Origin: Dacryopinax spathularia
Taxonomy: Eukaryota; Basidiomycota; Dacrymycetes; Dacrymycetales; Dacrymycetaceae
DNA: 64,000 bases
Assembly (NCBI GenBank): GCA_037974965.1
Contig: JBBPFI010000011.1
Coordinates: 310,001-374,000, forward strand
Direction: 5' to 3'
The notes under the pieces: generated by a model
What the model saw: the letters and a program-made list of their open reading frames with translations, nothing else
What the model was told of the DNA's origin: nothing
Database searches by the model: none
Translations under genes and position numbers: made by a program
Shown: positions 29,565 to 56,343 of the stretch, in pieces
How positions within the stretch are numbered: the first letter of the stretch is position 1
Layout of the letters: the number at the start of each line of letters is the position of its first letter

Positions 29565-30974
29565 TTATGGATTTGTGGTGATGAACCAATCAAAGATCTG
29601 GTTCAGCACGGCCTGCCTTCGTAGTAGCTTATCCTGCTGATTGACCAGCTCAATCAGTTGTTCGTTGACGCAACACATTTCGGCCATGCAGAGTTGGGTC
29701 ACAGCTAATGTATGGAGTCAGCTCCAGCCGCGCGTAGTATCCATCTAGTACTCACTATGTGCATTAGCATCCTCGGGCAGATCTACGTCCACGCTGCGAA
29801 GTGCTCGGATATAGTCCTCAGGGAAGCTACGCAGGTTGATCGTCCAGACTGGGACCGGTTCGGCCGCCAGAGCCCTCGGGGAGGTCGTTGTTTCAATCCC
29901 TTCTACGGCGGCAGGAGCAGGTGACGTTGACGAGTTGTGGCTCCGGGCGTCGTCTCCTTCCTGGTCAACGTCGCCTCCGCTGTCTTCCGGCAAGGACCAT
30001 GGAGCGGGCAAGTTTTTGGTTTTGCCAAATCCTACGATTTTACCCCGAATTGCAAACGACTGTATGCAGAGAACGGACTCACGAGTAAAGAATGAACAGC
30101 TGTTCCTCGGTTTGCAATGGCTGCATGCCCAGTAATCTGCATATTTCCCTCCCAGTCGCCGTGGCCCGTCACAGAGAGATGCCGTGTTCTCTTTGTCGGA
30201 AGAGGAGCGTAGTCGACAAGAGTCACACTACTTACTCGTGAGATGGCCCTGCATAGCAGTGGGATAGGCTCACTGACGATCAGACCTTTCCCATGTTGAC
30301 CTTGCACGTCTCCTGCGTCCGTAACCGTAACCTCCTTCCTTCTCGCTGCCGGGGCCACTAACACTCTTCCCTTCCACTTTCGCTTGTGCAACTCAGAGTC
30401 GTCTGAAGATGTTGTTTGTATCTGCCGTCCTACCACGTCGTTCTGAACGCCAAATTAGCCTGAGATGAAATCATATTCGTCCCAAGGAACGGCGGCTCCC
30501 GCTGGGACCTCTGGACCCGCACTCACCTCTACATGTTCAAAGCGGGCACGCTTACCCAAGCCTGTGTTGAGAGATGATGCTGCCTCACTGGGTAGCAAGC
30601 CAGGTCTCGAAGTAGGCGCACCACCTGCCGGTTTTGCCAGGCCGGCGTCATCTTGCGGAGCAGTCTCTGGCGTTGCAGTCCCCATCTTCGCCGGTTGTTG
30701 TAAAGCCTCGACGACCAACGCCCTCAGCTCATCATCAAGAGCATCGGTTATGGCCGGCGGCATTGAAGAAAGCTTCGCCGGATCATTGTTCAGAACTTGG
30801 AGAATAAGCTCCTAAACGAAGTTCAGTGATGCTAACTAGCTGAACTGGAGACTAACGCACCCGAAGCTGGGCCGCATTAGACTTATAAGCGACCTTCCAC
30901 TGCTCTGTTGTTGTACTCCCTGCGGCAAGCTGACAAACGACTTCCCACTTTCGAGTGACTGCTGGTGTGAGCAT
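29565..30974 (-). CDS. Six-cysteine cluster protein, family 1 member a
   Basis: Unrecognised in known families. Six exons (30974-30861, 30811-30527, 30442-30278, 30227-30083, 30031-29756, 29704-29565) splice cleanly to 374 residues. Layout: N-terminal helical module (about 1-80, starting TRKWEVVCQL), Pro/Ala-rich linker with a basic KRARF motif, then a cluster C189-x2-C192-x14-C207-x15-C223-x2-C226-x5-C232 followed by SF. The C-terminus is a Leu/Gln-rich predicted coiled coil (LIELVNQQDKLLRRQ). Introns are 49-51 nt, except 84 nt before exon 3. A phase-0 intron ends exactly before C189 and a phase-1 intron follows SFFT. Both positions recur in the gene at 40058-41578. Six cysteines with C-x2-C pairs suggest a zinc-binding, perhaps DNA-binding, module; this is inference. 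Confidence 0.74.
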
Positions 30975-31046
30975 GTTGGTAGTCGTAGCGAGCACGTACA
31001 GAAGGACGAGTGAGCCTCATTGCTGTTCAGGCTCACTCAGGGTCGA

Positions 31047-31056
31047 CGGAGCTCCG
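31047..31056. promoter_or_regulatory. CGGA-NN-TCCG palindrome upstream of family 1 member a
   Basis: Copy with centre GC, about 73 bases upstream of the minus-strand ATG at 30974. Position and form match the copy upstream of the CxC gene at 23913. Confidence 0.4.
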
Positions 31057-31592
31057 ATTCCGTGGAACCTGGACGCGCCGACTATTACACCGATGGATTC
31101 CACGCTGTTCCGCCAAGTCAGATCATCGAAGGATCGAGCTTCGCGCTGAACTGCGGCTCGAAGTCTTTCCCTTCTAGGTACTCCGTCGGGCTAACCTTCC
31201 CTTGTACTTCTGCTCTCCCCCCCTTTTGATACATGCAGCACCATTGAGGGAATGAAGGTGTCGGATCCACGTCGTCCGGAATGGGTTGGCCGCCATCTCC
31301 ACTAGTCACAGTCCTAGCCGCAAGGCGACTTTGCGAAGAGTGCCTCCCTTACCTAAACGCGCGTTTGTCCTCAAAGATGAAGGGGATGGTAGTGATTGAG
31401 AGAGCATGTGCGCCTTGCTCACTCCATTCGACGGTTGGCTAGCGATTCACGCACATTAACGTGGCTGGAAGTCGAGAGAACGTGTCAAAACTTCGTTATC
31501 GAATGGGATCAAAGACAAGAGAGATAATCTAAGAGCTAATGCTGCCAATGTTCCTGGCACTGTCTGTCACACGATGAAGGGATGACAAGTTC

Positions 31593-32700
31593 TCAGACAC
31601 CAATTTTCTCCACCCATTGCTCATAAACATAGCTCCCGAAGACATCCCACTGCGTGACAAACCCTTGCAGGAGTGACTCGTGGAATTCCGCGTAATTGAA
31701 ACCATCGACGTCCGAGAGAAGTTCTTGAGGTTGAATACGTGCCTCAGCCGAGCGAGTCTGGGCTAGCAAGAAATGAAGCTGGGTAGGAAGATGAGCTGGG
31801 CACCTGGACTGTGAACGATGTACCCACTCGCATAGCGACGTAGCAAAGTGATGTCAGCAGGTACCTCGAAATATCCTCACCCGCCTGACACCGAACCAGG
31901 CAAAGGGCCGACGGGGATAGGCGGTGTCGTTTGAAAAGGTGTCGATACGCCTAGACAGTCTCAGATCCGCACGAGCACAAGCTCGCCGTCGCGCGTACCA
32001 GAAACAATGCAGGCGCCCCATAGATGCCCCCTCCCACCATGCCAGCCTGGCGGCGACCCTGTGGGAACAGGAAGGCGGGAAGATAAAAGGGTGGGCTGCA
32101 GTCGGTCAAACCGTCCACGTCGGACAAGAGCATCGGTACACTAGGGCCCCCTGCGGCTGGGGGGCCGTATGAGAGCAGAATCTCGAGAGAAATTTGGCGC
32201 AATGCTAGATCGTCTCGATCTAGCACCCAGGCTCGGCCAGTCGTTAACTGAAGAACCATGTGAACATATGGAACAAGGAGGGACGCGCGATTAGGCGTAC
32301 CTCCTGGCATAGAGTTGGGATGCCTCCTGCTACATGCAGCTGCTGTTGGATTGACGGCGCGATACGAGCAAGCAAGTCGAATTGCGAACGAATCTCACCA
32401 AGTGTCCTAGGAATGTCACGGTGTGAGCAGCGACGATGTCATCGTGCAAAATTCGCCTTACTGAGCAAGTGAAGCGCTATTGAAGCGACGCTCGCTATTC
32501 AGAGGTGCCAGGAGGCGCAGCAGGTAGTCAGAAGCTCTGATCGGATTCAGCGGAATTCAGACCTCGGAAGATGACTGTGCCCACTGCTCTCCGTGCATCC
32601 ATACGCCGTCCGAGGTAGTAGCTGCCAGCGCAACCTGTAGAATAACCTCAAAGGGGGCCGCTAAGAAACCCATCTGCGTGAAAACAGCTCCAGCAAGCTG
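31593..32700 (-). CDS. Probable multi-exon gene, product unknown
   Basis: Exon-like segments on the minus strand can be joined by introns of about 50 nt: one with SLNS-type Leu-rich sequence (LLRLLAPLNSERRF), one reading LGEIRSQFDLLARIAPSIQQQLHVAG, one with WVLDRDDLALRQISLEILLS, and a last one ending YVYEQWVEKIGV (stop at 31593-31595). The pattern is of an alpha-helical repeat protein. The string LLSDVDG occurs twice, which suggests an internal duplication. One in-frame stop remains between the first two segments under the simplest splicing, so this is either a missed intron or a decaying gene. Start and full exon set are unresolved. Confidence 0.4.
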
Positions 32701-33269
32701 AACCTCAGACCTGGAGTGGACATCAGAAGGGGGCGGTGCACGTTCCTACGGAATTATACTCACAATGCTCGCTTCCCTCGAACCGCTCGTTCTATCGGAA
32801 TGTTACAATAAAGACGGTGCCACAGCCAAGCCTGGCAACTATGTCAGTGCTTTTAACAGTCCGCCGCTGATACGAGGCTCACCTGAGCTTGGTGTCGCTG
32901 GGAGCAGTACCATTGACCATGACAAGCAGAGCAGCGAAAGACAACACCTAGCTTCCCACAAACAGCGCAACAAGGTCCTGCCATTATTGACCGGCTGAGG
33001 AGCGTAAGAGCAACTGGGGAAAATGCACAGAGGAGGGGGGCGGAGGGCAGCTTTTACGACAGACCTCCGCTGTGCACTCTCATTTAAGAGCGCTCGAGTA
33101 GGGGGGGCTTCTTGGCGAGGCCCGATCCTCACGTCTGCAACCAAAATTTGAAACCTTTCCTCCATCAGCTGCGGAGAGGCAGAAGCCTAGGTCACTTCTG
33201 GGAACGCTGCCCAATCAGAACGGCTGAGCCTCCCCTGCTGTGATGACTCCCCGAGCCACCCTCGCGCCA
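32701..33269. other. Region of unclear content
   Basis: May contain first exons of the minus-strand gene to the left (an ATG-initiated 108-codon frame runs 33165-32839), but no splice chain could be fixed. Nothing else is recognisable. Confidence 0.3.
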
Positions 33270-34330
33270 GAGTATGAGACGTCTAGGAAGGCGCGCGGAA
33301 GGTGGTTCTTGTCGAACTATCAAATCGAATGATCGGTGGAAGCCAAGAGCAAGGACAGTCAGCACGGAGCCCCGTCGCCAGGATATGAGGCGTGCAGAAG
33401 GTGGTTCCTGTCAGATACGGAAGTGAATGATCGGTGGAAGCCAAGAGCAAGGACAGTCAGCACGGAGCCCCGTCGCCAGGATATGAGGCGTGCAGAAGGT
33501 GGTTCTTGTCAAATACGGAAGTGATTGATGAGTAGAAGCCCAGAGCAAGAGGAGTCGGCACGGAGCCCCGTCGCCAGGAGAAGTGGGACGTCTGGAAAGG
33601 CTTGCGGAAGGTGGTTCTTGTCAAAATACGGAATTGAACGGTGCAAGCCCAGAGCAAGGAGAGTCGGCACGGAGCCCCGTCGCCAGAAGAAGTGGGACGT
33701 CTGGAAAGGCTTGCGGAAGATGGTTCTTGTCAAAATACGGAATTGATCGGTGCCAGCCCAGAGCAAGGACTGTCGGCACGGAGCCCCGTCGCCAGAAGAA
33801 GTGGGACGTCTGGAAAGGCTTGCGAAAGGTGGTTCTTGTCAAAACACGGAATTGATCGGTGAAAGCCCAGAGCAAGGAGAGTCGGCACGGAGCCCCGTCG
33901 CCAGAAGAAGTGGGACGTCTGGAAAGGCTTGCGAAAGGTGGTTCTTGTCAAAACACGGAATTGATCGGTGAAAGCCCAGAGCAAGGACTGTCAGCACGGA
34001 GCCCCGTCGCCAGAAAATGGGACGTCTGGAAAGGCTTGCGGAAGATGGTTCTTGTCGAAATACGGAATTGATCGGTGAAAGCCCAGAGCAAGGAGAGTCG
34101 GCACGGAGCCCCGTCGCCAGAAGAAGTGGGACGTCTGGAAAGGCTTGCGGAAGATGGTTCTTGTCGAAATACGGAATTGATCGGTGAAAGCCCAGAGCAA
34201 GGAGAGTCGGCACGGAGCCCCGTCGCCAGAAGAAGTGGGACGTCTGGAAAGGCTTGCGGAAGATGGTTCTTGTCGAAATACGGAATTGATCGGCGGAAGC
34301 CCAGAGCAAGGAGAGTCAGCACGGAAGCCA
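33270..34330. repeat. 109-bp tandem repeat, about ten copies
   Basis: Unit reads approximately gatcggtgaaagcccagagc then caaggagagtcggcacggag, ccccgtcgccagaagaag and tgggacgtctggaaaggc to ttcttgtc. Copies begin every 109 bases (for example 33641, 33750, 33859 and 34075, 34184). The left copies are more diverged (cgtgcagaaggtgg variants) and one copy is three bases shorter. 109 is not a multiple of three, so the long open frames through it on both strands cycle through frames and are artefacts of stop-poor repeat sequence. Confidence 0.95.
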
Positions 34331-35914
34331 GTGTTTGGCAAAGATAGGACAACACATACGCCCAACAAGATGGTAAGTAGTACTAGTCTCATCGCATGTG
34401 TTACCAAAGGCGATGTCGGCTATCCGCTGATTGAAACCCGCTTGGCATCAACGGCATCTTCCTGAAGGATATTTTCTCGTTAGCAACCGAACAAAAGATA
34501 AAACCAGCTGTGTGGGAACAAACCGACACTGTAGATCGCCGATTGATCCGGAGTTCGGTCTCCGTGCGTTGGGGACCCGGTTCCTGGGAACGGAGCTCCG
34601 TTTTCGTCTTGCCCTCGGTCGGCTCTCGCTTCCGACCTCTGTGTTCCGTATGATTCGGAGGTCCGCGGCTGTTCGTTGACAGGGCCTGTAATCACATGGC
34701 GGAACTCCGTTTTCTCGCCCAATGGACCTTCCGGTATGGGGTTCTCCTCCGGATTGTATATTACACGATCACACAGTCACATCAGCAGCGGAAGGGATGA
34801 GTAAACGAACAGTGCGTCCGTAGACCAAAATAACCGCTGTGAACGGAGATCCGTTCCACCGGGTCTCTCAATTTCCTCGCCCAAAATAGGTACATAGTCA
34901 CAGAGTTCCGACAGAGGTTTTTACTGCGCGGAAGCCACCTTAGTGCACGCTGCTATCCTCCGTGAGAGCTAGGAAACTCACTCAACGTCTGCATTCTCAA
35001 TCTCCGAATAGAACGATGCACACCCACATCGTATAGACGCTCTCTCTAAGCGGAAGATCGTCTTGTGGCTGATTATTTTCGACAACCCTGTTCGGTAGCG
35101 GTTGGTCCTCGCTTGGCAACAGCTGCATCTGCATGAACGGGCCTCCCTCGCCAGCCACCCAGCTACTGACGAAGAGCATGATCTCATCGGACCCAACTTT
35201 CGGATGCCCGGCAGACACAGAACTCCGTGCCTGTTCTGTGGTGGTGACAGGACGGAGCTCCGTTCTGCTCACATGCGGCCCCACCGGTCCCAACGGCCCG
35301 GCATCACACAACCCTCAAATCTTCCAGCCAGAGATGATCCCTTCACCGTCCGATCCGGAGACGGCTGTCAATCTATTTTGTTTGCGTCGTCAGGATAGTA
35401 AAAGGCCGCAATCGAGATTGATGGAGTGCAACTAACTTCGAGTCTCCTGACCGCCGGCCGAGACTGTTTCAGAATCCTTCTTGGGACCGATTCATCAGTA
35501 TGACCTCCTTGGATTTTCAGAGTTTCATAAGATCTCCATTGCCGTCAATACAATTTCAGAAGTCTGAGAACGGAGGTCCGTGACGACAGAGTCCCCAACG
35601 CGCCCTCCTATGACTATCATACGAGGATAATTGTGAGGCCATTGGTCCTGTGCTCAGGAGTGTTACCAGTCTTGAGGGGCGTTCTTCTGTTTTTGCACCA
35701 GGCGCGAAGACAGGTCAACATTGGCTCAGAGCCAGTGAACGTGATTCCACCTTCGGTTGGGTGGATTTTCGCATTGCTCGACGGCCATTGCTCTCTGCCC
35801 ATACATGTATAAAATACGTGTATCTACTCAGTGGTTCCGCCATTGCCCTACATCTACCAGGCACCCTTTCACCTATCTCCCTCCACGGCCGCGCCTCTTC
35901 TGTGGAGTGCCTGC
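34331..35914. other. Intergenic, rich in CGGA-NN-TCCG palindromes
   Basis: No gene recognised. Palindromes start at 34591 (GC), 34656 (GG), 34700 (AC), 34844 (GA), 35253 (GC) and 35571 (GG); further near-matches lie between. The last one is about 335 bases upstream of the ATG of the zinc-finger gene at 35915. Confidence 0.5.
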
Positions 35915-37672
35915 ATGTCTTCTCCACGAAGGCTCTCCCCTGACAGGGTGGCCCTGGAAAAAGTTGCAGAGCTCCTCAATATTCCCGTTCCGGCTTCCCC
36001 GCAACCCTGCAGCATATGTCCTCGTCAATGTAAGGTCCGTGTCGCTCTTGGGAGATCGAAGGATAGCGACCCTAGAAACTATGGCAGAATATATGCGGTG
36101 GTGAGTGTGCTAGTACCGCTTGTATCTATCCCCAGACGCGTGTGACCAATGTTTTTCATAGTGCTGGAGATGTCGCAGCCTGTCTCTGGGAGGCTGGCAG
36201 TTCTTCAACGATCCATGGCCCGAAGATCTTCGGGAAGACTTGCGACAAGCACTCCGCGGTCTCTCTCACGACTGGTCCCCTTCACCAACAAATTCTCCTC
36301 CCGCCGCAACACAAGTACTCACGGCCATTCGCGGAACTGCGAAAAGGAACATGAAATGTGCTATCTGCGAAAAGCGATCTGCTCTCGCCTGCGACAAATC
36401 GATGTGCAAAGCGTGCTGTCTTGACGACGAGGTGGCACGCCGACTAAAGCAAGCCCGTGGTTGCGAGTTCCACCGCATTGGGAGTCTGCCAGCCTCTAGC
36501 GCTTCCCGGCGCGAGTCGCACGGATCGCGAGCAAACGCGGCGCCCGTGGACTTGCAGACAAATGTCCAGCCCACGATGGTCACGAATACCAGCGACCTTC
36601 CTGCTTCTGAGGGGTCCCGGCTGACAGGACCGCTTACAGTACGGGTGGGACGACCTCTGCGTTTCAAGCCCTATTCACAAATTCGAGCTCGGTTGTTTGA
36701 AGCGGAGGAGGCCAAGAAAGAAGCGGCGTACTTGGCATCATCCCGGGATGACGAATTGAGTCGATGTTTTCGTCTGCTACTTTTCTTGCCGGTACGTTCC
36801 GTCTTTCCTCGGAGTGGACAGCTCCTAAGCAAATACAGATCGGCCAGAAATTGACATTCTCCGGCCTCGTGGCCAACAAGAGCGCAAGTGGACTCACGAC
36901 GAGAGCGTCCGAGTGGCCGCCCCACGTTCAGCGCGTCATTAGGGAGCACATGGGAGACATGGGAGAGTGCTTGGCCATATACGAAGTTGCCAAGGGCGTC
37001 TGGTCCTTGTATGGATGGGAGACACTCCTTAAAGTGACAGCGGGTGAACTTCTCCTCTGCCGAACCTCAAGTGTGCCAGAGGATGCGAGAGAGGTGCTGG
37101 AGGCGGTCTCTTTATGTCGATCCCAGCCGGTCCGAGACGCACGGCGTACGAGGCTTCAAAACCATATGCAAACTCCTGCCAGCCCCGCGTCTCCGGCAAG
37201 ACTCACCGTTTCGCCGACCACGCCCCGGAGAGCCAACAATGCTCAAGTCGTTGTGGATCTCACCGGCGAGTCTGACCAATTCGGTACACCGCTCGACTTC
37301 TCCGGATTACCGCCATCATCGCCCACTTCATCGCCGAGTACCCCGGGCTCCAGTTCAGTAAGCCCTTGCAAGCGCCGGGCGATGAGTTTATGGCCAGGTA
37401 CCCGAACGTACGGCGAGATCCTCCGTGATTATCGTATCATCTGCGAGAAGGCCGGTACACATTCATCTACCCAGATGAGCGCTTTCAAGGCACACTATGG
37501 ATTCACACTGTCGTACAATACCTGGAAAGAGAACGTACGAGGCCTCCGTGCTACAGACCCGGCTGCTGTCGCTTTGCGCAAGCAATATGAGCGCGCGCCT
37601 GAAACACCATACACTGTGTTCCGCCGCGCCTTCACGGCTTTGCGGCAGGGAAGGTCACCATCTCCAGTGTAA
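35915..37672 (+). CDS. GRF-type zinc-finger protein with second cysteine cluster
   Basis: Three exons (35915-36100, 36162-36791, 36839-37672) give 549 residues. The N-terminus has a GRF-like finger interrupted by the first intron: CSICPRQCK ... YGRIYAV, then CWRCRSLSLGGWQFFNDPW. The C-x2/3-C pairs and the aromatic FF-x-D end fit GRF fingers of nucleic-acid enzymes. A second cluster follows at about 130-170: CAICEKRSALACDKSMCKACC and then GCEFH. The middle is Ser/Pro-rich. The C-terminal 100 residues form a helical module (TYGEILRDYRIICEKAG, YNTWKENVRGL). No catalytic domain was seen. GRF fingers bind single-stranded nucleic acid in TOP3A, NEIL3 and APE2; a nucleic-acid role here is plausible but unproven. 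Confidence 0.74.
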
Positions 37673-37888
37673 AAGCGCGTCGATAGGGATGGAATGTAAA
37701 GTGCAGTTATGAATTCTGGTTTACTGCATGCCACGTCTTCCCCTGTGACTCTTACTCGCACCGTAGCGGGACACAGCTTGCACACTGTAAGACCCTTAGA
37801 TAATCCGGAAAAGGAAAGCCTTCCCATTGGTTCGGCTCCTGGTCCTTGACCACGATCATTGTCCAGTAATCGTTGACCATACGGCCTC

Positions 37889-39293
37889 ATGAAGCTCGCT
37901 CCACCAAGCCAAGTCGTGATAGATGAATTTATGGAGATTGTGCGTGCCGCGTCTACAGAGTGTTTCTCTGCGCCGCATTGGTCCTCCCGCTACCACAGCA
38001 GGCCTGCATACTATGAAGTGCATATATGCATGTGGGATTCTGTCGTATCTGACGGGGCCCCGCAGGAGATGATCGATATGGTGGTCCAATCTGCGCCTGA
38101 GTGTTGCGCTGGGATTCCTCCGCCTTTCTTGTGGCCTCTTCCTACGCCGTATCGCCTGAAGTTGGGAACCGCGGCAGCTCGGGGGAAGATAATCTTGGAG
38201 ACGCGAGAGAGGAACACAGGAAGGGGTTCGAGAGTCGGCATAGCACGAGTGCGGGATCCGCTCCACGAACACTATAGCACTTACGATCGTACTCCCTCGG
38301 ATTTGGAGACTGCAAGAAGCGATAAAGGCTCGTCGAAGGATCAAGACTTCCGAGTCCCACTGCTGCACCAAGGAATCGCCGACAACACCGCCACAGCTGC
38401 ACCCTCAGGGCTTGAATCGGAAGACGCAACTCAGCTTCCACAAAAACGAGCGGCAAGGTCTCTCCCATTAAAGTCTTGTTTGAATGAAAGCGGGCTTGGC
38501 ATGGCTGAAGGAGAGGACCGTCCTCTACAGGACGACGCACGGGTCGATCCTTCGACGGCCCTCCGTCAAGGTGTCCAGCTGACCTGCAACGACTCTGAGC
38601 CGGAGAAGTGCTCAGAACCGCATCTTTCGATAACCGGAGTTCCGGAGACTGCGAAGCGTATCAATGAGGTATGTCAACCTGCGATCTGCATTGTGCTGCT
38701 GTTTTATCCGTACTGCAGGAGAATTCGCTAGGACCAGCCGTAACGCCGTCCAGTGCCATGGATGCTCAAGTAAGGCTCCCTGCAGCGTACCGTCCTCCGT
38801 CCACCTCCAACTGGCTCACTCCTTAGACATGCTCCACTCCTGAGCCGCAAAGATCGGACGAGGCAGAAGAAGGAAGACAGGGGGCAAGGATTGAAGGCAG
38901 CGTAGAGAGTGCGGTGATACAAGGGGATCGGCCGCAGGCATCCGTGAGCAGTGTGGTCTAGCACGGGTGATGCGGTTTGCCTAATTGTGATGCAGGGATG
39001 GACAACCGCATCCACGAAGCGGCCATGTCAAGATGTTTCCGTTGAGCTGTGTAAACCACAAAAGCGTGCCAGAACTGGCGCCGCGCCCGGAAGTAAGGAC
39101 GTCACGCAGCTCGTTATGAAGGACTTGGCTGGTAGGGTTCTGCTTGATTTCAGCTGAGCCCTTCGTTAATACTTTCATAGAGACCCGGTCGTGTATTGCC
39201 CGGGTCGCTGCGGATGCGGCTGCAGCAAAGGAATGCGTGATCGCCGGTTGGCTGCAGCTTTCGAAGCTTCGCACGGTTGTGCAGCGTTTATGA
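37889..39293 (+). CDS. Family 1 member b, without cysteine cluster
   Basis: Five exons (37889-38668, 38719-38769, 38827-38955, 38996-39131, 39181-39293) give 402 residues. The N-terminal module (residues about 20-105) parallels that of the gene at 40058: a Pro/Tyr stretch, then a helix, SAPECCAGIPPPFL and TPYRLKL aligning with YAPEYCIDLPSSFL and APDYRLRL. The rest is a low-complexity acidic/Ser-rich linker with a basic KRART motif and an Ala-rich, probably coiled-coil end (VAADAAAAKECV). The six-cysteine cluster of its paralogues is absent. If the last donor is not used, the protein would stop at 39157 instead. One intron (40 nt, donor GTCTAG) is unusually short and weak, so the model is less certain than its neighbours. 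Confidence 0.58.
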
Positions 39294-40057
39294 TTCCAAT
39301 CCACCTCTATCAGAGCCGCCTCCATGATGCAGACCTTCCCCTGATGTGCTTCTCCCGGCTTCGCATTGATCCACTGATGTAGTTGCGTCGTTCTATGACA
39401 TGCACACTCTATAATGAGCATTCAGTTCTACAGCAGCGGAAAACCATTCCGGAAAGATCAATATGTGAAGGGTGCGCGCGGCATTAGTAGCCCAGTAAGC
39501 GGCGAAACGACTGTGTCCGCGGGTGATGAGCTGAAGGAATGGATGAATACGTCTGATTGCAGAACAATGACATTACTCCCAGGCGATCAATGCCAATGGC
39601 CTGTTGAGGAAGCAACACCAGTCAGCTGATCCAAATGGCCTCCCACGATCTACCCAGTTGGTCCAGGAGTGCGCGCACCAGGGCTCCAAAAGGTGCCTGA
39701 GTCCTCCCGTCTGACGGACGTCCGAACGAAGAATCGCCGGAGTCCCTGGCGGAGCTCCGGCCCAGTATGGTTGCGCGGAAGTCCGCGCCTCCACGCTGCC
39801 TGCTCGTCGGAGGCGCCCGCCCGGACATCCGCTCCTCGAACCCTTCTGCAGACCCATAGCCCGGACGTGCTCGTATCTCGCGTAGCTTCATCATCGACTA
39901 GACCTTCGTTGCCCGCACACCCAGGCCGATAGATACGAGCATATTTGACGCCCTACAAGCTGCGGCTGTGTCATTGGCTGGCTGTGTCGCGCAGGCGAAA
40001 GCGCAGTTGGTTACGGCCAAGCGCACCCCTTCGACTGCAACATCCAATCAACCGGCC
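39294..40057. promoter_or_regulatory. Upstream region with four CGGA-NN-TCCG palindromes
   Basis: Palindromes start at 39715 (CG), 39750 (GC), 39776 (AG) and 39822 (CA), 226-343 bases upstream of the ATG at 40058. A 71-codon frame at 39414-39629 has no recognisable features and is not called a gene. Confidence 0.45.
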
Positions 40058-42595: not shown

Positions 42596-42774
42596 TGTCT
42601 TCCTATGGGTGTACCTCACTTACATTGCAAACTGTGCGCTCCCAGTGGAAAGGCCCGGCGATCTATCCAAAGTACAGCCTATAGCTTACGGAGCTCCGCC
42701 CTCAAAGCAGTTCTGCCATAAAGCTTAAATCGACAGTCCCGCTCACTTCGCGCATGGTAGCTGTTGGTAGGGAA

Positions 42775-47900: not shown

Positions 47901-48558
47901 AACTTCAGACCAGAGCAAAGTGGGACGTTCGGTATCACCGTACACGCTGGCCCACAGAAAGAGCGTTCCATCCTCCTCAACGAAAGAGGGCGGTCGCGGA
48001 TCCACTGGAGGACGCAGAGCCGAATACTGCGATCCCAGGAACGTCCAATACGTAGCGGGAAGTAGAGTCATATCGAGTGGCACTTCCGCTATGTCCGGTG
48101 TATGCGAACGACCCGCATACAAATCCCGGTATACTGCCAATATCTTCCGGATCCGTTGCTCGAGGATCGAAGGATGTCGACCAGACATCGAAAGCCAGTA
48201 GAAGAACCGAATGTATATGTTCTATGGTTCTGTCAGGAAGCATCTCGAACGTATGTTGGTGCATACATACTGCAATTCTGCCCTCCTCTTGCAGGAGCGA
48301 CTGGTCTCTGAAGTTGCGCTTCTTCACAACAAGATGTCCATCCAGGGCGGCGAGCGTATGCTCCACAAACTCTCCCATATGCGTATAGACAACACGTTGG
48401 ATGTTGTCCCGGCTTCGACCGATAGCGGGATCCTCACTCATCCGCACAAACGGATCAGGCGAAACGACGCCCGGCTGAGCATCACGATTGACAATATTGT
48501 TCCCTGCTTTCACGCCTGGGGACACAACGTCATCTTGCGCCATAATGGCCATTGTCAT
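44963..48558 (-). CDS. Large protein: family 2 N-terminus joined to family 1 C-terminus
   Basis: Start ATG at 48558. Clear exons are 48558-48271, 48221-47775 and 47727 onward, then a long segment ending 46908, then 46862 to about 45553, then the terminal exons to 44963. Introns are 45-54 nt; one junction near 47.5-47.6 kb is unresolved. The first 300 residues match the family 2 proteins at 51654 and 57081 (helical block before an intron, then VYGDTERPTLLW against VFGPSTYRAW). From about 46.9 kb the family 1 plan begins: helical module, long acidic/Ser-rich linker with KRARF, then C-x2-C, a large Asp/Glu-rich insertion, and C-x7-C-x2-C-x6-C then LW, preceded by a phase-0 intron. It is either one fused gene or two adjacent genes read in the same direction. 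Confidence 0.55.
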
Positions 48559-48833
48559 GCAAGTGTTCTCATGCGACTATCAGAAAAAGGCGGGCGAGGA
48601 GCATAGGTGCTGGCGAGAAGTCAAGTCTGTGGGTAGTAGGCTGTCGTGACTCAATAGCACATGAGCGCTTATCCCGTCAGGGATCGGCGCTCGGAAACAT
48701 CTCGGTCCAAGCAGCGACTCAATCGTCTCCAGACAGGTTCAGGTTAGACTCGCGCTGGATATTCTCCAACCAACCCTCACCTTAACGTTATCACCGCGAT
48801 TCTGCGTATGTCAGCACCGCTGCGGATCAAAAC
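48559..48833. promoter_or_regulatory. Divergent intergenic region
   Basis: 275 bases separate the start codons of the minus-strand large gene (48558) and the plus-strand helicase (48834). The spacing implies a shared or overlapping promoter. No TATA box or CGGA-NN-TCCG palindrome was seen inside. Confidence 0.4.
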
Positions 48834-51325
48834 ATGGGTAGAGCTTGCTCGACCTCTCTCTCCCGTTCTCTATCTAAGAATGCGCGACGGATGGCCAAGA
48901 TTGCTTGCAAAGCCGGATCGCTCCGCATGCCATTAGATCTTGGCGGAGGACGACGCCCTGCCGAGCATTCGACTTCGCCGCCGACGCATGATTCTGCCCG
49001 CAGTGAAGTGGGGCCGACCTTTTGGGAGGACGACGAAGTGGCAATCCTTGGTGTTGGCGTGGTGAGCATGTGTTGGCGTAACGAGATGCTCTTATCACTG
49101 ACTGCTCCTACGCATGCACCCTGCCCTCGTCATTCTGCTACCCTTCAGTCTACTTCACCTCACCATGGTCTCTCCGCCGTCTCTCCGCCTCTAAACACTG
49201 AGCGTGTAGAATCATCGGATTCACGAACCCAAGGAAATCGGGGCACTGCTGCCGCCGTCTCTATCGAGAGCCCAAGACAAGCCCAGTCCTCGTCCCTCCC
49301 CGTTCGGCCCGCTCCATTGGAGCCTGGGACCACTCTCGAGACAGCCCCTGTGCCAAAACCCGTACCGAGTGCATCAGGGCCAGCCATGGCAAGGCTCAAC
49401 CAAGTCCGCGTTTGGCTGCCTGAGCGGCCGCCCTCTCCTATCCCAGACTCATTGGCCATCTTAGATGAAGAGCAGGAGGCCGCCATGAAATTATTGCAAG
49501 ATGGCAAGAGCTTTCTCATCACCGGCGCGGCAGGTGATCTAAATGGTTTATGGCTCTTTGCGACGACGCTGAGAGCTTCGCCAGGAACTGGCAAGTCGGC
49601 TCTTCTCCGTCACATCATCTCCAAAAGTCGCAGCGATCTGCGTTTTAGTGAAGAGAGCATTGCTGTCACAGCTACTACGAATTTGGCGGCGGCTTTGATC
49701 GGTGGGGAAACCATACACCACTGGGCAGGCATCGGCACCGGCGAGGAAGGCATCGAGGTCTTAGACCCATACATTCGTCGGCATCCTGAGATCTTGGCGA
49801 GATGGAGGACAGTAAAACGGCTGATACTCGATGAAGGTGTGCTGCGTGTCATTCTGTCTAGCACCTGCTGAGACGTCACCCTAGTCTCCATGCTCAATGC
49901 TGATACCTTCGAACTGCTGGAGCTGTTGGCGCGCCTTTTGCGTGGCAGCCGGCTACCGTTCGGTGGCATTCAGGTCCGTAACCCAATGAAACCGCGCTTA
50001 ATTCCGCTGACCATCGGAATAGGTTGTCTTCTGCGGAGACTTTCATCAACTACCGCCCGTCGATGAGGACGAGAAGCGTTGTGGACGCTATGCCTTTCAA
50101 TCCGAAAGATGGTTTGCTTGCTTCGGTGAAGTGGTGGAGCTTGTTAGAGTACATCGCCAGAAAGACCAAGGTATGCACCTCTATATCAATGAAAATTGAG
50201 CGATTTCTTGCTCACCAGTGACTTCTAGACCTGATCAACCTGCTCACGGACGTCCGTCAGGGATCGCTGAGCGACACGTCACGCGAAACACTGGACCGAT
50301 TGAATCAGCAGAAGGATTACCCGCCGGGACTCTTTGCAGTGAACATGTGCGTGTTAGCGCTGCCTGATACTCCCAAGCATTCACGCCGAAAATACATTCA
50401 GATTTTGTCACAATGCTCCGGCTTACGCAGTCAATGCGCAATATGTGGATGCCATGCCGGGCTTTGGAATTACTTACTTGGCTCAAGATGAGATGGACGA
50501 ATGGTATCGAAGCGATCGGTCCAAGAGGCGGAAGGTCGAAGCCCTGTTCAACAAGGAGAGGGCACTGCCAAAACTCCAATTGAAAGTGAACGCGCGCGTT
50601 CTTCTGCTTCGTCCTGTACCAGGATATCCAGCCTTGGTGAAGGGTCGCTTTGGTGTTGTCCGCGGTTTCGCTCCGCGAGGCGACTGGTTGGAGGGCGACC
50701 GTGATCTCGCCAACTTTTCTCCAGAAGCAGTGCAATGTCATCGCCACACCATTTACAAAGACCTGTGGGCGGACGAGACACGGTATCCGATCGTGGAATT
50801 TGACGCTATTGCAAGCCTGGGCGCGCAGATAGCAATGGTTCTCCCTCAGGGTTTCGATGTGCGAAAGAGATGGGGGCCGTATCCGAGACCGTCCGTGGGA
50901 ATTCGTACCCAGGTAAGGAGTCACGATTACCGCACACAGCCAGACTGACGGACTATGATTAGATACCGCTCAAGTTGGGCTATGCTCTCAATGCGCATGA
51001 AAGCCAAGGCCAGCGATTCGAGCGAGTACGGGCTGAGGTTGGCGGGGCGTGGGAACCAGGCAGGCGAAAAGTCTATCTGGTCGCAAAGTGGCAGCGCTCA
51101 CCACGCACAGGACATGTCTACACGATACTGTCCCGTGCCACCTCACTGGAAGGTTTAGAAGTTCGTCCATTCTCTAAAAAGGCGGTAAGAAGTTTCGCTG
51201 GCTTGATCCGATCTCAGTGTTCACGAACTGCCCCTCTCCTGCAGATCAAAGTGGATGACGCGGTTGTTCGGTGGTCCAAGTGGGTGAACCAGAATAAATG
51301 GCGACGTTCAGAGGGGAATGGGTAG
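48834..51325 (+). CDS. Pif1-like DNA helicase
   Basis: Superfamily 1B 5'-3' helicase. Nine exons (48834-49061, 49149-49533, 49585-49836, 49885-49973, 50023-50170, 50229-50346, 50402-50912, 50963-51184, 51245-51325) give 677 residues. Motifs in order: Walker A GAAGTGKS (about 202-209, split by an intron), TATTNLAAALIGGETIH, Walker B LILDEVSM (about 284-291), GDFHQLPPV (about 323-331), and the Pif1 signature region YALNAHESQGQ (about 584-594) and ILSRATSLEGL. The N-terminal 180 residues are a Pro/Ser-rich extension. No Rep/HUH nuclease precedes it and no OTU or Cys-rich Helitron domain follows, so it is not a standard Helitron protein. All motifs are intact. The 87-nt and 51-nt first introns are stop-free multiples of three, so splice choice there is least certain. 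Confidence 0.85.
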
Positions 51326-51653
51326 TCTACAGTTCTCTGGTGGCATTGTCGTTCCTTCCGCCCTGATATCGATAGTTACTTGACCCAACATATCGGAGCT
51401 CGGAGCCCTCCATTCTCGAGCTGAGAGTTGAGATCATATTACCCGATATGGAAATCAGATGGGAAAGGTCTGATCCCGCGGTCACGGGTCTAATAAACAA
51501 CGCGAACCCAAACACGTCACCGCCTACACGTTCAAGTTGCCGTTCCCTGCCACCTTCCTGTTCAGCGACATCACCCTTGGCCAAGGTGAAGACTTTGTGG
51601 CCAAGCAAGAACATACTGCCCTTGTACTGGAGCTCCGCAAGCAAGCCGACACC

Positions 51654-53950
51654 ATGGCCAACGTGCGCTATCTCACGGTGGACGGAAAACGGCTTCCACT
51701 CGGTTACGGTATCCTACTACTAAGCAGGCTACTTATGCTGCTGGATGAATCCCAGGGCCCAGCAAAGAGCACGTCGAGCAGGGTCTTCGAATCTCGGAGC
51801 GCTGTGTGCTTCAGCAACGGCAAGCGCTCGGCTCTGGACGCCACGGCCTTGGATCTGACCAGGCAACTACTGCAAACATTTCCGGAGGAAGGGTTGGTGG
51901 CTGGCACCGCCCGACTCGAAGTACATCGCCCCATTGTGTGTATTGGAGCTGCTACCAAATCGGTGACGGCTCCTCCTGATCAGCCTATGGACTGCAAACT
52001 CAGAACTTCTTGTATGAGCGTGCCTTGGGTTGCATTGCCAGTGGACGCTGACCGATCGGTTGTCAGGGGAAGTGGCTTTCAACGATAGTGCATATCTCCA
52101 GTCGCCGCTGGTTATGTGGAGCGTAGCCCAAATCTCGAATACTCCGGACAGAGACGAACCGCTGGAAAAGCGCATGGATAAGCAGTAAGTTGCCTGCCAC
52201 ACGCCCGACTGAAATCATGCATTCACTCTGTGTAGATTGGAAAGCTGTATACGGGACAGTCGCGAAGCATACATTGACGATATAATGAAATTGCTTCAAG
52301 GCTGCCCCGCATCCCCGGGAACACGATTAGACGGAAGTGCATGCCAGCAGTGGATGTGGTATGTGCCGCAATTTGGCCGTGTTGTCTTCCTCACATGTCA
52401 AAATCAGGCGAATCATCACTTTCATTCTTGTTCACCGTATCCCCCATTTGGAGGCCCAGTATGAAGTAGTGGACAAGATGTTCTCTGCACCGGTGTCAGA
52501 TTTGCTCCGACTGTGGCCCGGATGCAGAACAGAGCCACAATCCGCATACGAATACAGCCTTGTCGGGCTGCCCGAGCCCCTTCAGCTGTTCATTCGGTCC
52601 CTCATCCATGTGAAGACGGCCTCGCACAATGACGCGCAACGCAACGTCTGGCTATCCCTGGTTGAAGAGTCAGGGTGCGCCTCGCAGGGAGGGGATACCA
52701 AACGGTTGAAGACGGGCGCATCAAAGTTTATCCGCGTAGTGCCTCTCGAAGCCAACGGACGGAATTCAAATGGAGAAACGCAGCTGGTGGGCGTCTTTGG
52801 TCCATCCACCTATCGGGCCTGGGCACAGCTTCTCGCTCACCTCCTTGAACGCATACATGCGCCACTTCGTTGGATATGTCGGGTTCACGCCCTCTCAGCC
52901 AGCACGTCGGTCCCGAAGAATGATAGCCGAGACCAATGCTTGCCTGGGCTTGCAAAGAAACCGCCCGTCGTGGGAAAGTCGCACTTTCGCAGGGCAGTGG
53001 ACCAGATCCGAGCGCACTTGGAAGTGCTATGGTCGGTAGTCTACTGGTCGAGAGGCGACTTGCCCCAACCAGTGAAGTACTTCGGTATATTCGACGAATT
53101 GCTGACAAGGGACGATATCGGGCTGAGTCGCTTTCTTCGGCAACATCTAAGTAAGTGACCACGATGAGGCCTCTCGCCATAGGCTGACGTGATTTTACAG
53201 GAGAGGGAACGGAAGAATCCTCTGTTTCTCTATGGGTTCATGAATATCTGAGGGTGTTGTGCTTCGCCGTGGAAGCGGGTCGGGAACTGGCGACGTTCTA
53301 TGGACAACTGGATCCGGACTTTCGACAGTCGCCTCTTCAGTGCTTACTTATAAACGGATCCTGCCACAACCCGCTTAATTCCCTTCCTCTCGACACCTTC
53401 TCTGCGTTCATGGGTCATCTTTGTGAAGGAGCTGGGTTGATTGTCCAGAACGACTTTGTTCAGGCACTGTGGAAACACATGGCCATGCAAAATCATCAGC
53501 CCGTCATCCATCCGAGCAATCTCTTGGCTGCGATATCGAACCATACCGTAGAGAGACTATGCCCGTGCGAATGTAACCACCTGGACGGCCGGTGTGAGCT
53601 CTATCGGGCTCTGCGCTCCGGCGAAGTAGAGGAACCTATGTATACCATCCATGTATGTCATGTTCCTGTTTCACTGTGCCTTCAGTGCTTCCCTGACATC
53701 CTCATAGCGCGCCTATCGGCAGTCCACGGAATATGTGCGCTGCGCAGTATGTCGCTGGCTGCTTCGTCCCGCAGAGTCCCGGCCCGACACTTGCGACGAA
53801 GACGGTGATATGCTTTGCTGCCTTCCATTTGGCTTGCAAGACCACGAGGAGATGGAGGTCCTCAACATGTTGCAGCGCACTTTGGCACGGAGGCTGAAGA
53901 AGCATGGCTCCCTGCTTGATCGCCTGCGTGTTAGCGAGCATGGGACGTGA
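51654..53950 (+). CDS. Family 2 helical protein with cysteine-rich C-terminus, member a
   Basis: Unrecognised family. Six exons (51654-52011, 52067-52184, 52236-52358, 52408-53150, 53201-53652, 53708-53950) splice cleanly to 678 residues. Largely alpha-helical. Aligns by eye with the gene at 57081-60100: LVGVFGPSTYRAW against YEGVYGPANAHAW; RDDIGLSRFLRQHL against DDDLGLALHL; and CPCECNHLDGRCELYRALRS against CPPLSCKHADKRCHLFHEVRS. After the last intron a second cysteine group appears (YVRCAVCRW ... CCLPF) and then a basic helical tail. A phase-2 intron after TG at 52358 corresponds to a phase-2 intron in the paralogue. Starts 328 bases after the helicase on the same strand and is convergent with the next gene (299-base gap). 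Function unknown; metal binding inferred from cysteines. Confidence 0.72.
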
Positions 53951-54249
53951 TCGATAGTCGCTCAATGCAGTCCAAGTGACTGAGCATGATATTCTTTTGT
54001 GTATTATATCCCTGCGCCGTTCAAACCAACATGTGATCCCCGACCAGGAAATGTTACCCTCATCCCCAACAGATGGTCCCGCTGTCTACATTGTCGCTGC
54101 ACTGTATGGCGCCATAGCCGCCGTACTCTTCGGATAGCCCGCTCTCACCCTCACCTCACCTGTGTATTGTCCCAACGGGACGTTAATGGCTTACCCCATC
54201 AGGAGTGCTTCAACGGAGATCTTCGGGATGATGGGCGGCCTTCAGGTGT

Positions 54250-56343
54250 CTATTCGCCTTCCATCAAATCTGCTAGTTCGCACTGTACGGCTGGTTCAGA
54301 CGGCTGGACTAAATTAGCCGAGGGTTTACCTTAGGAGGAATGTGCTTACCGGCTCTGGCTTCCTGATATTCTTCCAGTAATGAGATATTGCGCTCCATCT
54401 CCTCTATTCTGAGCCAGGCACTTTTCAGAGAGGAATTTGCGGAGTCGAACGCCGTTTGTGCATGTTGAAATTCTGTTTTGGCCTCTGCAGCGGGGATGAA
54501 TTCCGTCTTCGGGCTTGCAAACTGCGATATTTACCGGCTATCAAGCGCATTGGGCTGGCATCTTCTGCGGTCGGTACAGGCTCGTCCTCTGTCCCATCTT
54601 TAACTACGGATTTCTTCTTTCGAGCCGCTTCTTCCTGGAACATCTTGCGAAGACGCTCCAAGCGAGCTCTAGTCAACCCCGTTGGCCGCGGGATGGGGAG
54701 ATGCTTGTTGAACTCTGCTTGTCGTGAGCTCGCAATAGCAGCGACGCGATTAAGACAACCGGCCTTTGAAGGAGCACGAGCGCTTCCTAGTGTAACGACA
54801 CTCGCCGCATGCCCATTCTGCTTTCTGACTCCGTGCTGCTTTGTAACTGTCGTCAACTTTCTGGTCTTTGTTCTCTCCCTTTTCTCTATTCTCCCCCGGA
54901 GCTTGCGGTGGTTTTGCTTTCGTCTGCCCAGGTATGCACTCAAATATTAGGTCGTCCCCTCTGACGGTGGCGAGATAAAGGCACAAGTCGCACTGTTCGA
55001 AGTCAGTGTCAGGAAGAGCTGCGACAACGATGTCGAATTCTCACCACCAGCTCTGGAGAGCATTTCTGCAGAAACGCCTCATCTTTGCCTTCATCAAGCT
55101 TCTGCTCAATCAACGACATGACATCCTGCCTCCGCTGCTCCCATGATACCTCCTCTCGCTTTTTCTTGACGGGACGTGTCGTAGAAGAGGGATCCGATTC
55201 ATTCACCTTGCGCTTACGAGCAACGTGCGGCTCCTACTCCTCGATATTGAAGATTGAGGAAATGCTCAACGACGGAATGAGACCGCGCACCGCAGGATTA
55301 ACCGCTGCACTGGCGACGGATGCGTCCATCGCCGTACCCGCGAGCTTTTCTCGCTCCGCAGCCTTCCTTCGGCTTGGCTCGGGTTCAGCTCTCGTTGAAG
55401 ACATAGCTTTCTCTTGACGTATGGGATGATCGGACGATGAGGACCTCTTGCTTGCACCGCCCCTCCAGATTGAACGGCCGGTGTACTTGGGGGCAGTTTT
55501 GACTGTCTGCACATATGCCGTTGAGTGACGTGCACGTTATGAACCTGTCACCTTACCCTGCGTTCCATCGGTCCCACGGACGCATCGTCCTCGTCACCAC
55601 CTCCATTCAAGGCCATTTGTAGCATCATCGCCAATTGTTCACCACCACCCAGATCACCATCAAGGGCTGTGTTTCGCGTGTCTACTCGTATTATATTGGT
55701 GGACTCTTCATTCGCCGGAGGAGGGTCGAGACCATTGGGAGCGGAGGATAGAGACGCTGACGGTCGCTGATGATCGTGCTCCTCGCCAACATCTGGGCGG
55801 ATGGACGCCCCGGCGTGCAACGGAGAACCGCGGGTGAGTGTATCATGACGTTCATGCTCTGGTACCTCGGATGCGTCCCGATGTTCGTCGGATCCGGTTG
55901 CGGCCGACTCGGACGCGTGATCACCATTATGGGGCGCCTTCATCACCTGATCAGTCTGCGTCTGTTCCATGACGGCTACTGTAATCTTACTTTTCGTGGA
56001 TCCGGTCCAGTCTGCGTGCCACCAGAAGTCGGCAGATTGGCGGCGGTAATCTGCAGCTGTTCACGCACTTTTTCAGGAAACGGTCGGAGAAACTCGTCTG
56101 GCAGATTCGCACAGAGCTCAGGTAGGCATCGATTGATCCTACCTGCAAGCTTCTGTACAACAACAAGGTAAGCCACGGGTGGTAGGACAATATAAGACTT
56201 ACGATGTATTGGTCTCGCTCCTTCCCGAATAGCTGTTCCCATGAAACTTGCCTCCGCGTCATATTCTTCTTGATTGATAGAGCGATAGCAGCTTCCCAGC
56301 GTTCTCTTTCCTCAGGAGTGATGGGCTTGCTTGATTTCGGCAT
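54250..56343 (-). CDS. Six-cysteine cluster protein, family 1 member d
   Basis: Exons 56343-56203, 56152-55991, 55946-55557, 55506-55291, 55233-55045 and 54992 onward are clear; the remaining junctions near 54.5-54.8 kb are less certain, and the stop is at 54250. N-terminal module (MPKSSKPITPEERERW ... LPELCANLPDEFLRPF) with a phase-0 intron after DQYI, comparable to the first intron of member a. Then a long acidic/His-rich linker, basic KRK and KKKRE motifs, LIEQKLDEGKDEAFLQKC, and the cluster C-x2-C-x14-C-x42-C-x2-C-x7-C then SF; here too a phase-0 intron ends exactly before the first cysteine. The C-terminus is a coiled coil (SAWLRIEEMERNISLLEEY). A 57-nt intron near 55.25 kb ends in an in-frame TAG, so unspliced RNA would truncate the protein before the cluster. 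Confidence 0.68.

What the first reader, a model, noticed from the sequence alone, without database searches (positions are those of the whole stretch)
29565..56343. Undescribed local family of six-cysteine cluster proteins
Seen: four genes (30, 40, 45 and 55 kb) encode a cluster with terminal C-x2-C-x5-7-C, usually followed by SF (LW in the 45 kb gene). Three share C-x2-C-x14-C and the fourth has an acidic insertion there. In all four a phase-0 intron lies just before the cluster, in three exactly before the first cysteine. The 40 and 55 kb genes share a helix with KL-x-D/E-GKD-x-AFL-x-KC, and a fifth gene (38 kb) shares only the N-terminal module. Conserved intron phase and position argue for common descent. 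Known: six cysteines with two C-x2-C pairs recall Gal4-type Zn2Cys6 clusters, but the first loop is far longer. Inference: a lineage-specific zinc protein family expanding by local duplication.
Basis: partly seen in the sequence, partly recalled or inferred. Interest (0 to 1): 0.85.

Follow-up and report, generated by a model that had tools for sequence, protein, structure and literature searches.

The report
Six-cysteine proteins inside giant fungal transposon
Three of the four reported genes form a real new family of six-cysteine proteins, and they sit inside a 40 kb mobile DNA element that is studded with one short mirror-image DNA sequence which these proteins may recognise to control the element's own genes.

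Summary
Three of the four reported genes (30, 40, 55 kb) are one protein family. The six-cysteine cluster has its own exon, with a phase-0 intron exactly before the first cysteine. In the searches run, relatives occurred only in a second region, on contig C1, with a 99.5-99.9% identical copy on C8. Synonymous sites are near or at saturation and amino-acid changes far fewer: real, selected genes. The 38 kb gene shares only the N-terminal module; the 45 kb gene belongs to a dispersed family.

The surroundings matter more. The genes lie in a 39,692-bp mobile element (23743-63434): 8-bp target duplication CAAAAGTC, imperfect terminal inverted repeats, a CxC5-CxC6-KDZ-like transposase gene at the left end, and a left terminus shared (one difference in 23 bases) with the C1 and C8 copies. 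Palindrome CGGANNTCCG occurs 39 times here (under 1 expected) and 64 times in the held part of the C1 copy, near background elsewhere. In five of eight shared genes it keeps its distance from the start although flanking DNA has diverged.

Best reading: element-encoded dimeric zinc-cluster-like proteins that bind these palindromes and regulate (or un-silence) their own element. Zinc and DNA binding are inferred, not shown.

The parts
23743..63434 (.). mobile element, 39,692 bp, that contains everything below except the target duplications
   Evidence: left terminus shared with the C1 and C8 copies in three different flanks; 8-bp target duplication and imperfect terminal repeats at both ends
23735..23742 (.). 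left target-site duplication CAAAAGTC
   Evidence: 3 occurrences on the + strand of the 64 kb window, two of them exactly at the two ends
63435..63442 (.). right target-site duplication CAAAAGTC
   Evidence: the only one of 562 candidate right ends with 8/8 (next best 5/8)
23743..23766 (+). left terminal repeat GAGTACGTTCAGGTAGCGTGACTA
63411..63434 (-). right terminal repeat (reverse complement GAGACCGTGCCGGTTTGGGGACTA), 16 of 24 matches to the left one
   Evidence: best of 562 positions (next 13); 15 or more of 24 in 0.013% of window positions
23913..26139 (+). putative transposase gene, CxC5 - CxC6 - KDZ-like core, 170 bp inside the left end (hand-called start; exons not modelled)
   Evidence: CxC5 E 3e-22, CxC6 E 9.5e-24, KDZ E 3.8e-4, 20.7 bits against a cut-off of 26.6
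29565..30974 (-). six-cysteine gene g30 (6 exons, 374 aa); cluster exon 30083-30227
   Evidence: relative in C1 with 48.9% identity over the cluster
40058..41719 (+). six-cysteine gene g40 (7 exons, 424 aa); cluster exon 41212-41338; C-terminal heptad pattern
   Evidence: relative at C1:2430045 and following
54351..56343 (-). six-cysteine gene g55; cluster exon 54764-54992; C-terminal part 54351-54763 (exon ends there not modelled)
   Evidence: relative C1:2456392-2458657
37889..38731 (+). g38, N-module relative without a cluster (end of the open frame given; 3' part not modelled)
   Evidence: E 1.7e-8 to g40; frame
44963..48558 (-). 45 kb gene with a similar but separate cysteine cluster (member of a dispersed family; only its C-terminal exons 44963-45493 and 45543-45824 were modelled)
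35915..37672 (+). g36, cysteine-rich gene of a dispersed family, also in the C1 element
60524..61345 (+). g60, gene shared with the C1 element
61690..62253 (+). g62, gene shared with the C1 element; family dispersed
48834..51325 (+). PIF1-like helicase gene (hand-called span)
   Evidence: PF05970 E 1e-22 for hand-joined exons
23839..23848 (.). CGGACGTCCG, first palindrome, 96 bp from the left end
26187..26996 (.). array of 10 CGGANNTCCG, not near a called start
31047..31056 (.). CGGAGCTCCG, 73 bp upstream of the g30 start (68 bp from the nearest ATG in the C1 relative)
34591..35580 (.). six CGGANNTCCG upstream of g36 (nearest at 344 bp; 362 bp in the C1 relative)
39715..39831 (.). four CGGANNTCCG upstream of g40 (nearest at 236 bp; 246 bp in the C1 relative)
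42689..42951 (.). array of six CGGANNTCCG, not near a called start
60375..60384 (.). CGGAGCTCCG, 149 bp upstream of g60 (102 and 140 bp in the C1 relative)
63103..63346 (.). array of eight CGGANNTCCG ending 88 bp from the right end

Best explanation
The island is a giant cut-and-paste-type DNA element (39.7 kb here, over 100 kb on C1 and C8) with a KDZ-like transposase gene at its left end. The six-cysteine proteins are its own DNA-binding regulators. Each joins an N-terminal module (predicted helical), a linker region, a zinc-cluster-like six-cysteine exon and (seen in g40, g55 and their relatives; g30 ends in a different stretch) a heptad coiled coil, so it probably works as a dimer. The dimer binds the palindrome CGGANNTCCG (CGG-N4-CCG), which lies upstream of several element genes, including g30 and g40 and the C1 relatives of g30, g40 and g55, and which reaches to 96 and 88 bp from the element ends. 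Binding switches the element's genes on, or keeps host silencing off, and may also mark the ends for transposition. Shown: the family, the exon module, purifying selection, the element ends in the C11 copy, the palindrome enrichment and its conserved promoter positions. Inferred: zinc binding, dimerisation, binding to the palindrome, and the consequence of binding.
For: Family and exon module. Selection: pS 0.62-1.05 against pN 0.17-0.44 over 12 exon or gene-part pairs, lowest pN in the g55 cluster exon (0.169) and helix (0.185). Coil: the same heptad phase is best in all 6 C-terminal helices compared. Element: three different flanks with one left terminus; target duplication and terminal repeats; C8 pieces 99.5-99.9% identical to C1 over the collinear matches. 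Palindrome: 39 in 41 kb against 0.85 expected and 64 in 103 kb against 2.07; first of all 256 half-sites in both (next 6 and 10); 1 in the 96 kb of the seven other held stretches counted. All 39 window sites are inside the element. Genome total 702 against 491 for the reversed control, and 45 in the 2.43 Mb of C1 left of the element. 103 sites form 74 groups by flanks, none shared between the two elements. In 5 of 8 shared genes the nearest sites are within 50 bp of the same distance from the start; 0 of 20,000 circular shifts reach 5. Co-occurrence: g30-, g40- and g55-type queries matched only on C11, C1 and C8 apart from one weak C3 match; 0 of 42 copies of the other families on C1-C7 outside the element have CGGAGCTCCG within 20 kb. 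Zn2Cys6 dimers typically bind paired CGG triplets with a coiled coil downstream (PMC5559640, passages).
Against: No direct evidence that any of these proteins binds zinc or DNA. The first loop is 12-17 residues, not 6, and PF00172 does not match; profile comparison with four canonical clusters of this genome is weak (probability 12%). In this window alone the sites are not significantly concentrated upstream of called starts (5 of 36 within 300 bp, P 0.16; 9 of 36 within 1 kb, P 0.65): g55 and g38 have no exact site, and three arrays (24 of the 39 sites) are not near a called start. The 50-bp tolerance was chosen after I had seen the distances; the starts are hand-called, that of the C1 g30 relative was approximate (3 bp off an ATG found later) and the C1 g62 start has no ATG in frame. 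Two CGGACGTCCG lie 3.2 and 5.2 kb from a KDZ copy on C1 outside the element (positions 705273 and 714354; KDZ at 708434-709145), so a link to KDZ genes is not excluded. The exact CGGAGCTCCG has 105 genome matches against 79 for its reversed control. The heptad pattern is weak in 3 of 6 sequences (shuffle P 0.03-0.08). The g55 model needs a GC splice donor after the cluster.
Confidence: 0.52

Rival explanations
1. The palindromes are bound by the element's transposase (CxC5-CxC6-KDZ protein) or another element protein such as g36 or g60. They are subterminal and internal transposase sites, and the six-cysteine proteins do something else.
For: First and last palindromes are 96 and 88 bp from the ends and the right end has an array of eight; the transposase has its own cysteine clusters CxC5 and CxC6; a site lies 74 and 47 bp upstream of the transposase start in the two elements; two CGGACGTCCG lie 3.2 and 5.2 kb from one other KDZ copy on C1.
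Against: 0 of 15 other KDZ copies on C1-C7 have CGGAGCTCCG within 20 kb, one of them (C6:1057001) matching only the same part of the KDZ model as the copy here; sites also lie upstream of non-transposase genes at conserved distances.
Confidence: 0.27
2. The six-cysteine proteins are element cargo with a treble-clef or ribbon-like zinc module for protein or RNA binding; the shared location with the palindromes is only because both belong to the element.
For: AlphaFold gives a hairpin then a helix for the g40 exon, not two Gal4 half-motifs (mean pLDDT 68.7); the best profile hits in the PDB are ribosomal proteins L37Ae (zinc ribbons, recalled), not significant (E 0.085).
Against: Model confidence is low and Foldseek finds no fold (best E 5.1); the second half-motif C-x2-C-x5-7-C, basic in g55, and the heptad pattern fit a DNA-binding dimer.
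Confidence: 0.15
3. One reading: a lineage-specific family of zinc proteins growing by local duplication of host genes, with no mobile element.
For: Several relatives lie close together in each region.
Against: One precise left terminus in three different flanks, target duplication and terminal repeats; the 45 kb gene belongs to another family.
Confidence: 0.05

Closest known systems
Gal4-type Zn2Cys6 binuclear cluster transcription factors (PF00172)
   Same: six invariant cysteines, second half C-x2-C-x5-7-C, heptad pattern downstream, CGG inverted repeats nearby
   Different: first loop 12-17 residues instead of 6; no PF00172 match; cluster in the C-terminal half of the protein; the cluster is a separate exon; found here only in these mobile elements
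KDZ (Kyakuja-Dileera-Zisupton) DNA transposons with CxC cysteine clusters
   Same: CxC5, CxC6 and a diverged KDZ core at one end; 8-bp target duplication and terminal repeats as stated for Zisupton in PMC12730594 (abstract, introduction and section 3.2 read)
   Different: 39.7 kb and over 100 kb with many genes; a KDZ element named in passages of PMC12810828 is about 10 kb; in Pleurotus no KDZ transposon was found within the expected distance of CxC5/CxC6 genes (PMC7641404, passages)
Starship giant cargo transposons
   Same: very large, multigene, putative mobility gene at one end, precise boundaries
   Different: mobility gene here is KDZ-like, not a tyrosine recombinase (none seen in what was scanned); abstracts seen place Starships in Pezizomycotina, while passages of PMC13066641 report eight in the basidiomycete Tremella fuciformis
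VANC / VANDAL anti-silencing system of Arabidopsis
   Same: an element-encoded protein acts through short motifs repeated in the element's own non-coding DNA (PMC5735166, passages)
   Different: no VANC-type Pfam domain in the window proteins; motif here is a CGG-N4-CCG palindrome; effect on silencing not tested

Membership tests
Gal4-type Zn2Cys6 (PF00172) | C-x2-C-x6-C-x5-12-C-x2-C-x6-8-C spacing (recalled) | tested here: not met
   first loop 14 in five and 12 (or 16) and 17 in the other two of 7 sequences
Gal4-type Zn2Cys6 (PF00172) | match to the PF00172 profile | tested here: not met
   no match at E <= 10 for 7 cluster exons; 45 matches in the genome (35 over the cut-off), none in the window or in C1:2427-2530 kb
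Gal4-type Zn2Cys6 (PF00172) | coiled-coil dimerisation helix after the cluster | tested here: met
   hydrophobic a/d positions 8-10 of 10 in the same phase in 6 helices; shuffle P from 0 of 5000 to 0.08; computed only, and not seen in g30
Gal4-type Zn2Cys6 (PF00172) | binds paired CGG triplets | tested here: inconclusive
   CGG-N4-CCG strongly enriched in the same element; binding itself not testable here
Gal4-type Zn2Cys6 (PF00172) | two zinc ions held by six cysteines | not testable with these tools
   six cysteines invariant in 7 sequences; fold model low confidence
CxC1-CxC7 clusters of KDZ elements (six-cysteine proteins) | match to the Pfam CxC models | tested here: not met
   no CxC match for the g30, g38, g40, g55 and 45 kb sequences given
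KDZ DNA transposon (the element) | KDZ transposase domain | tested here: inconclusive
   20.7 bits against a cut-off of 26.6, model positions 119-217 only; same part in C1, 18.5 bits
KDZ DNA transposon (the element) | associated CxC cysteine clusters | tested here: met
   CxC6 E 9.5e-24, CxC5 E 3e-22
KDZ DNA transposon (the element) | 8-bp target-site duplication and terminal inverted repeats (Zisupton) | tested here: met
   CAAAAGTC at both ends, 16 of 24 terminal matches, C11 copy only; right ends of the C1 and C8 copies not seen
Starship | tyrosine recombinase at one end | tested here: inconclusive
   no such Pfam hit among the 9, 10 and 10 sequences; not every frame was scanned
VANC | DUF1985 / DUF287 domains (named in PMC5735166) | tested here: not met
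   no Pfam hit of that kind for the six-cysteine sequences given

The most novel reading that the evidence does not exclude
A previously undescribed class of giant, multigene DNA transposons in a basidiomycete-like fungus, moved by a KDZ-like transposase, carries its own sequence-specific control system: dimeric six-cysteine proteins with a variant zinc cluster and a matching CGGANNTCCG operator set that both promoters and ends share. It would be a fungal counterpart of the plant VANC self-recognition system built from a Gal4-like module.
Probability: 0.42. Interest if true: 0.88.

Novelty: new variant of a known kind. Interest (0 to 1): 0.76.

Why it matters
If true, large cargo-carrying transposons in fungi are not limited to tyrosine-recombinase Starships, and a mobile element has evolved its own transcription-factor-like proteins with private binding sites spread over its promoters and towards its ends. 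Two diverged elements in one genome keep the same 10-bp site at the same promoter distances after neutral sites are near saturation, which makes protein-site co-evolution directly testable. The cluster exon, with a fixed intron phase, is also a natural case of a movable zinc-type module.

Tried and rejected
Rejected: the 45 kb gene as a family member (dispersed family, different intron layout). Rejected: a C3 match as a relative (E 0.068; no cluster pattern in the fetched 18 kb). Set aside: the C1:2486569 cluster (C-x2-C-x6-C-x24-C-x2-C-x8-C), a dispersed family with 9 matches, near frames that look like a retroelement (label recalled). Structure: AlphaFold of the g40 cluster exon (mean pLDDT 68.7) and of the N-module (67.5); Foldseek found nothing useful for either (best E 5.1 and 2.8); VIA-align was not available. 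PDB profile search: 16 matches at E <= 10, none significant; best L37Ae E 0.085; AlcR, a Zn2Cys6 protein (recalled), E 0.5. A profile scan of viral contigs could not be run; metagenome and bacterial genome collections were not scanned. Palindromes as ordinary KDZ terminal repeats: not supported by 15 other KDZ copies for CGGAGCTCCG, though one copy on C1 has two CGGACGTCCG within 5.2 kb. A search for inverted repeats in 26-64 kb gave one weak pair because the range began inside the element. Paper searches on such elements, clusters and palindromes: (held open-access library only); nothing describing this element or this palindrome was seen in the listings, which is not proof that none exists.
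Full report
Observation. I rebuilt the genes by hand from the sequence. The 30, 40 and 55 kb genes each have a six-cysteine exon with the stated spacing and SF after the last cysteine; the intron before it is phase 0 and ends exactly at the first cysteine. A new point is that a phase-1 intron follows the cluster in the models of g30, g40 and the C1 relative of g30; for the 55 kb gene the frame demands an intron there but its donor would be GC. A DNA pattern with the splice acceptor and the six cysteines finds 3 places in the window and 5 in the C1 region (two of them identical inverted copies) and none in 90 shuffles (60 of the window, 30 of C1). The 38 kb gene shares the N-module only. The 45 kb gene has a cluster of similar layout but another intron position and belongs to a family with 22 matches spread over seven contigs, so it is a look-alike or a very distant relative.

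Relatives. The genome is 29.2 Mb in 24 contigs with the window at C11:310001-374000. Protein searches with the N-modules of g40 and g55, the helix-cluster-coil part of g40 and a g30-type cluster found relatives only on C11 itself and on C1 and C8; one further C3 match (E 0.068) did not hold up. g38 was not used as a query in the whole genome. C1:2427-2530 kb carries full or partial relatives of g30 (two inverted copies), g38, g40 and g55. The four C8 stretches compared match C1 collinearly at 99.5-99.9%. Between C11 and C1, 12 exon or gene-part pairs show pS 0.62-1.05 and pN 0.17-0.44: old copies under purifying selection, strictest in the g55 helix and cluster.

Protein. Seven cluster sequences keep all six cysteines plus Asp after the first. 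No Pfam family matches the g30, g38, g40, g55 or 45 kb sequences beyond chance (the 7 cluster exons); the 35 PF00172 matches over the cut-off in the genome lie elsewhere. Profile comparison with four canonical Zn2Cys6 sequences of this genome aligns the last half-motif with the first Gal4 half, weakly (probability 12%; 21% when the dispersed C1:2486569 cluster is added). The C-terminal helices of g40, g55 and four C1 relatives share one best heptad phase, clear in three and marginal in three. AlphaFold gives a hairpin and a helix for the g40 cluster at mean pLDDT 68.7 and an all-helical N-module at 67.5; neither model finds a fold relative.

The element. The C8 match to C1 stops at C1:2427069. 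The sequence inward from that point, GTGTACGTTCAGGTAGCGTGACT, is matched at C11 by GAGTACGTTCAGGTAGCGTGACT at 23743, and the three outer flanks differ. Scanning 562 possible right ends (63338-63899), position 63434 is best by both criteria at once: target duplication 8 of 8 (next best 5) and terminal repeat 16 of 24 (next best 13). This gives a 39,692-bp element with CAAAAGTC on both sides. Just inside the left end lies a gene with CxC5, CxC6 and a KDZ-like core below the curated cut-off, in the same place and orientation in C1. Zisupton elements of the KDZ group are stated to make 8-bp duplications and to have terminal repeats (PMC12730594, introduction read).

The palindrome. CGGANNTCCG occurs 39 times in window 23001-64000 (0.85 expected) and 64 times in C1:2427-2530 kb (2.07 expected). 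It leads all 256 four-base half-sites with a two-base spacer (next 6 and 10); other spacers from 0 to 8 give 0-4 in the window and 0-9 in C1; seven other held stretches, 96 kb in all, hold 1. All 39 window sites are inside the element. On C1 there are 45 in the 2.43 Mb before the element (that list stops at C1:2523887). The genome total is 702 against 491 for the reversed control. CGGAGCTCCG, counted exactly, has 105 in the genome against 79 for its control; 44 are on C1-C7, of which 26 lie in C1:2427-2540 kb. The 103 sites fall into 74 groups by flanks, none shared between the C11 and C1 elements, and lean towards GAACGGA(G/C)(C/G)TCCGTTC.

Position. In C1, 10 of 38 non-redundant sites are within 300 bp upstream of a called start (1.4 expected, P 8.8e-7); in C11 only 5 of 36 (2.9 expected, P 0.16), and 24 of its 39 sites sit in three arrays away from called starts. 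By another count, 5 of 12 C11 starts have a site within 400 bp (null mean 1.87, P 0.03) and 10 of 13 C1 starts (null mean 2.16, P 0 of 3000). The stronger test pairs homologous genes: nearest sites at 74/47 (transposase), 73/71 (g30; 73/68 with the ATG), 344/362 (g36), 236/246 (g40) and 149/102 bp (g60). g38 and g55 lack an exact site in C11, and g62 has 1315/601. Five of eight pairs agree within 50 bp; 20,000 circular shifts gave at most 3. The starts are hand-called and the tolerance was set after seeing the distances, so the P value is indicative.

Mechanism. Zn2Cys6 dimers typically read pairs of CGG triplets and carry a coiled coil after the cluster (PMC5559640, passages). The six-cysteine family has the half-motif and the heptad pattern (g40, g55 and relatives), and among the element's families tested it is the one found only where the palindromes are dense: 0 of 42 copies of the g36, g62, g45, KDZ and C1:2486569-type families on C1-C7 outside the element have CGGAGCTCCG within 20 kb (only C1-C7 are completely listed, and one of the 16 palindrome variants was used). 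Against this, two CGGACGTCCG lie 3.2 and 5.2 kb from one KDZ copy on C1. I infer that the six-cysteine proteins bind the palindromes and control the element. Arabidopsis VANC proteins are the closest functional parallel I know: element-encoded, acting through short motifs repeated in the element's own DNA, and removing silencing (PMC5735166, passages). The main rival is that the transposase binds the sites; placement near the ends (96 and 88 bp) fits that too, and both may hold.

Verdict. Zinc and DNA binding remain untested.

Noticed in passing
window 20722-22183 (-) and 64228-65728 (+, second part beyond the window): Two carboxylesterase-like genes (label recalled), about 70% identical at DNA level and inverted to each other, flank the element.
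   Followed up: partly
C3:1003437/1004973, C4:943063/937152, C8:805021/810900: Relatives of g62 and of the 45 kb gene lie about 1.5-6 kb from each other at three places; the C4 and C8 arrangements have nearly the same spacing in opposite orientation, perhaps another mobile unit.
   Followed up: no
C1:2435-2441 kb and 2448-2453 kb: Inverted duplication inside the C1 element carrying two copies of the g30 relative, with palindromes mirrored.
   Followed up: partly
C1:2486569-2486721 and 8 other places: Dispersed cluster C-x2-C-x6-C-x24-C-x2-C-x8-C; the 8 other copies are 80-98% identical to the C1 query, and in C1 a TAG stands directly before the first cysteine, as at the intron ends of the main family.
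   Followed up: partly
C1:705273 and C1:714354: Two CGGACGTCCG on either side of a KDZ copy (C1:708434-709145), 3.2 and 5.2 kb away, outside the element.
   Followed up: no
window 33289-34325: Tandem arrays of about 98- and 109-bp units inside the element; function unknown.
   Followed up: no
window 27212-27352 and 62662-62802: 36-bp-period repeats towards both ends of the element are about 69% alike in direct orientation.
   Followed up: no
C8:28670-36626: Five canonical Zn2Cys6 (PF00172) matches within 8 kb, a tandem cluster of ordinary zinc-cluster genes.
   Followed up: no
window 36357-36450: g36 carries its own cysteine-rich stretch (C-x2-C-x8-C and more) with no Pfam match.
   Followed up: no
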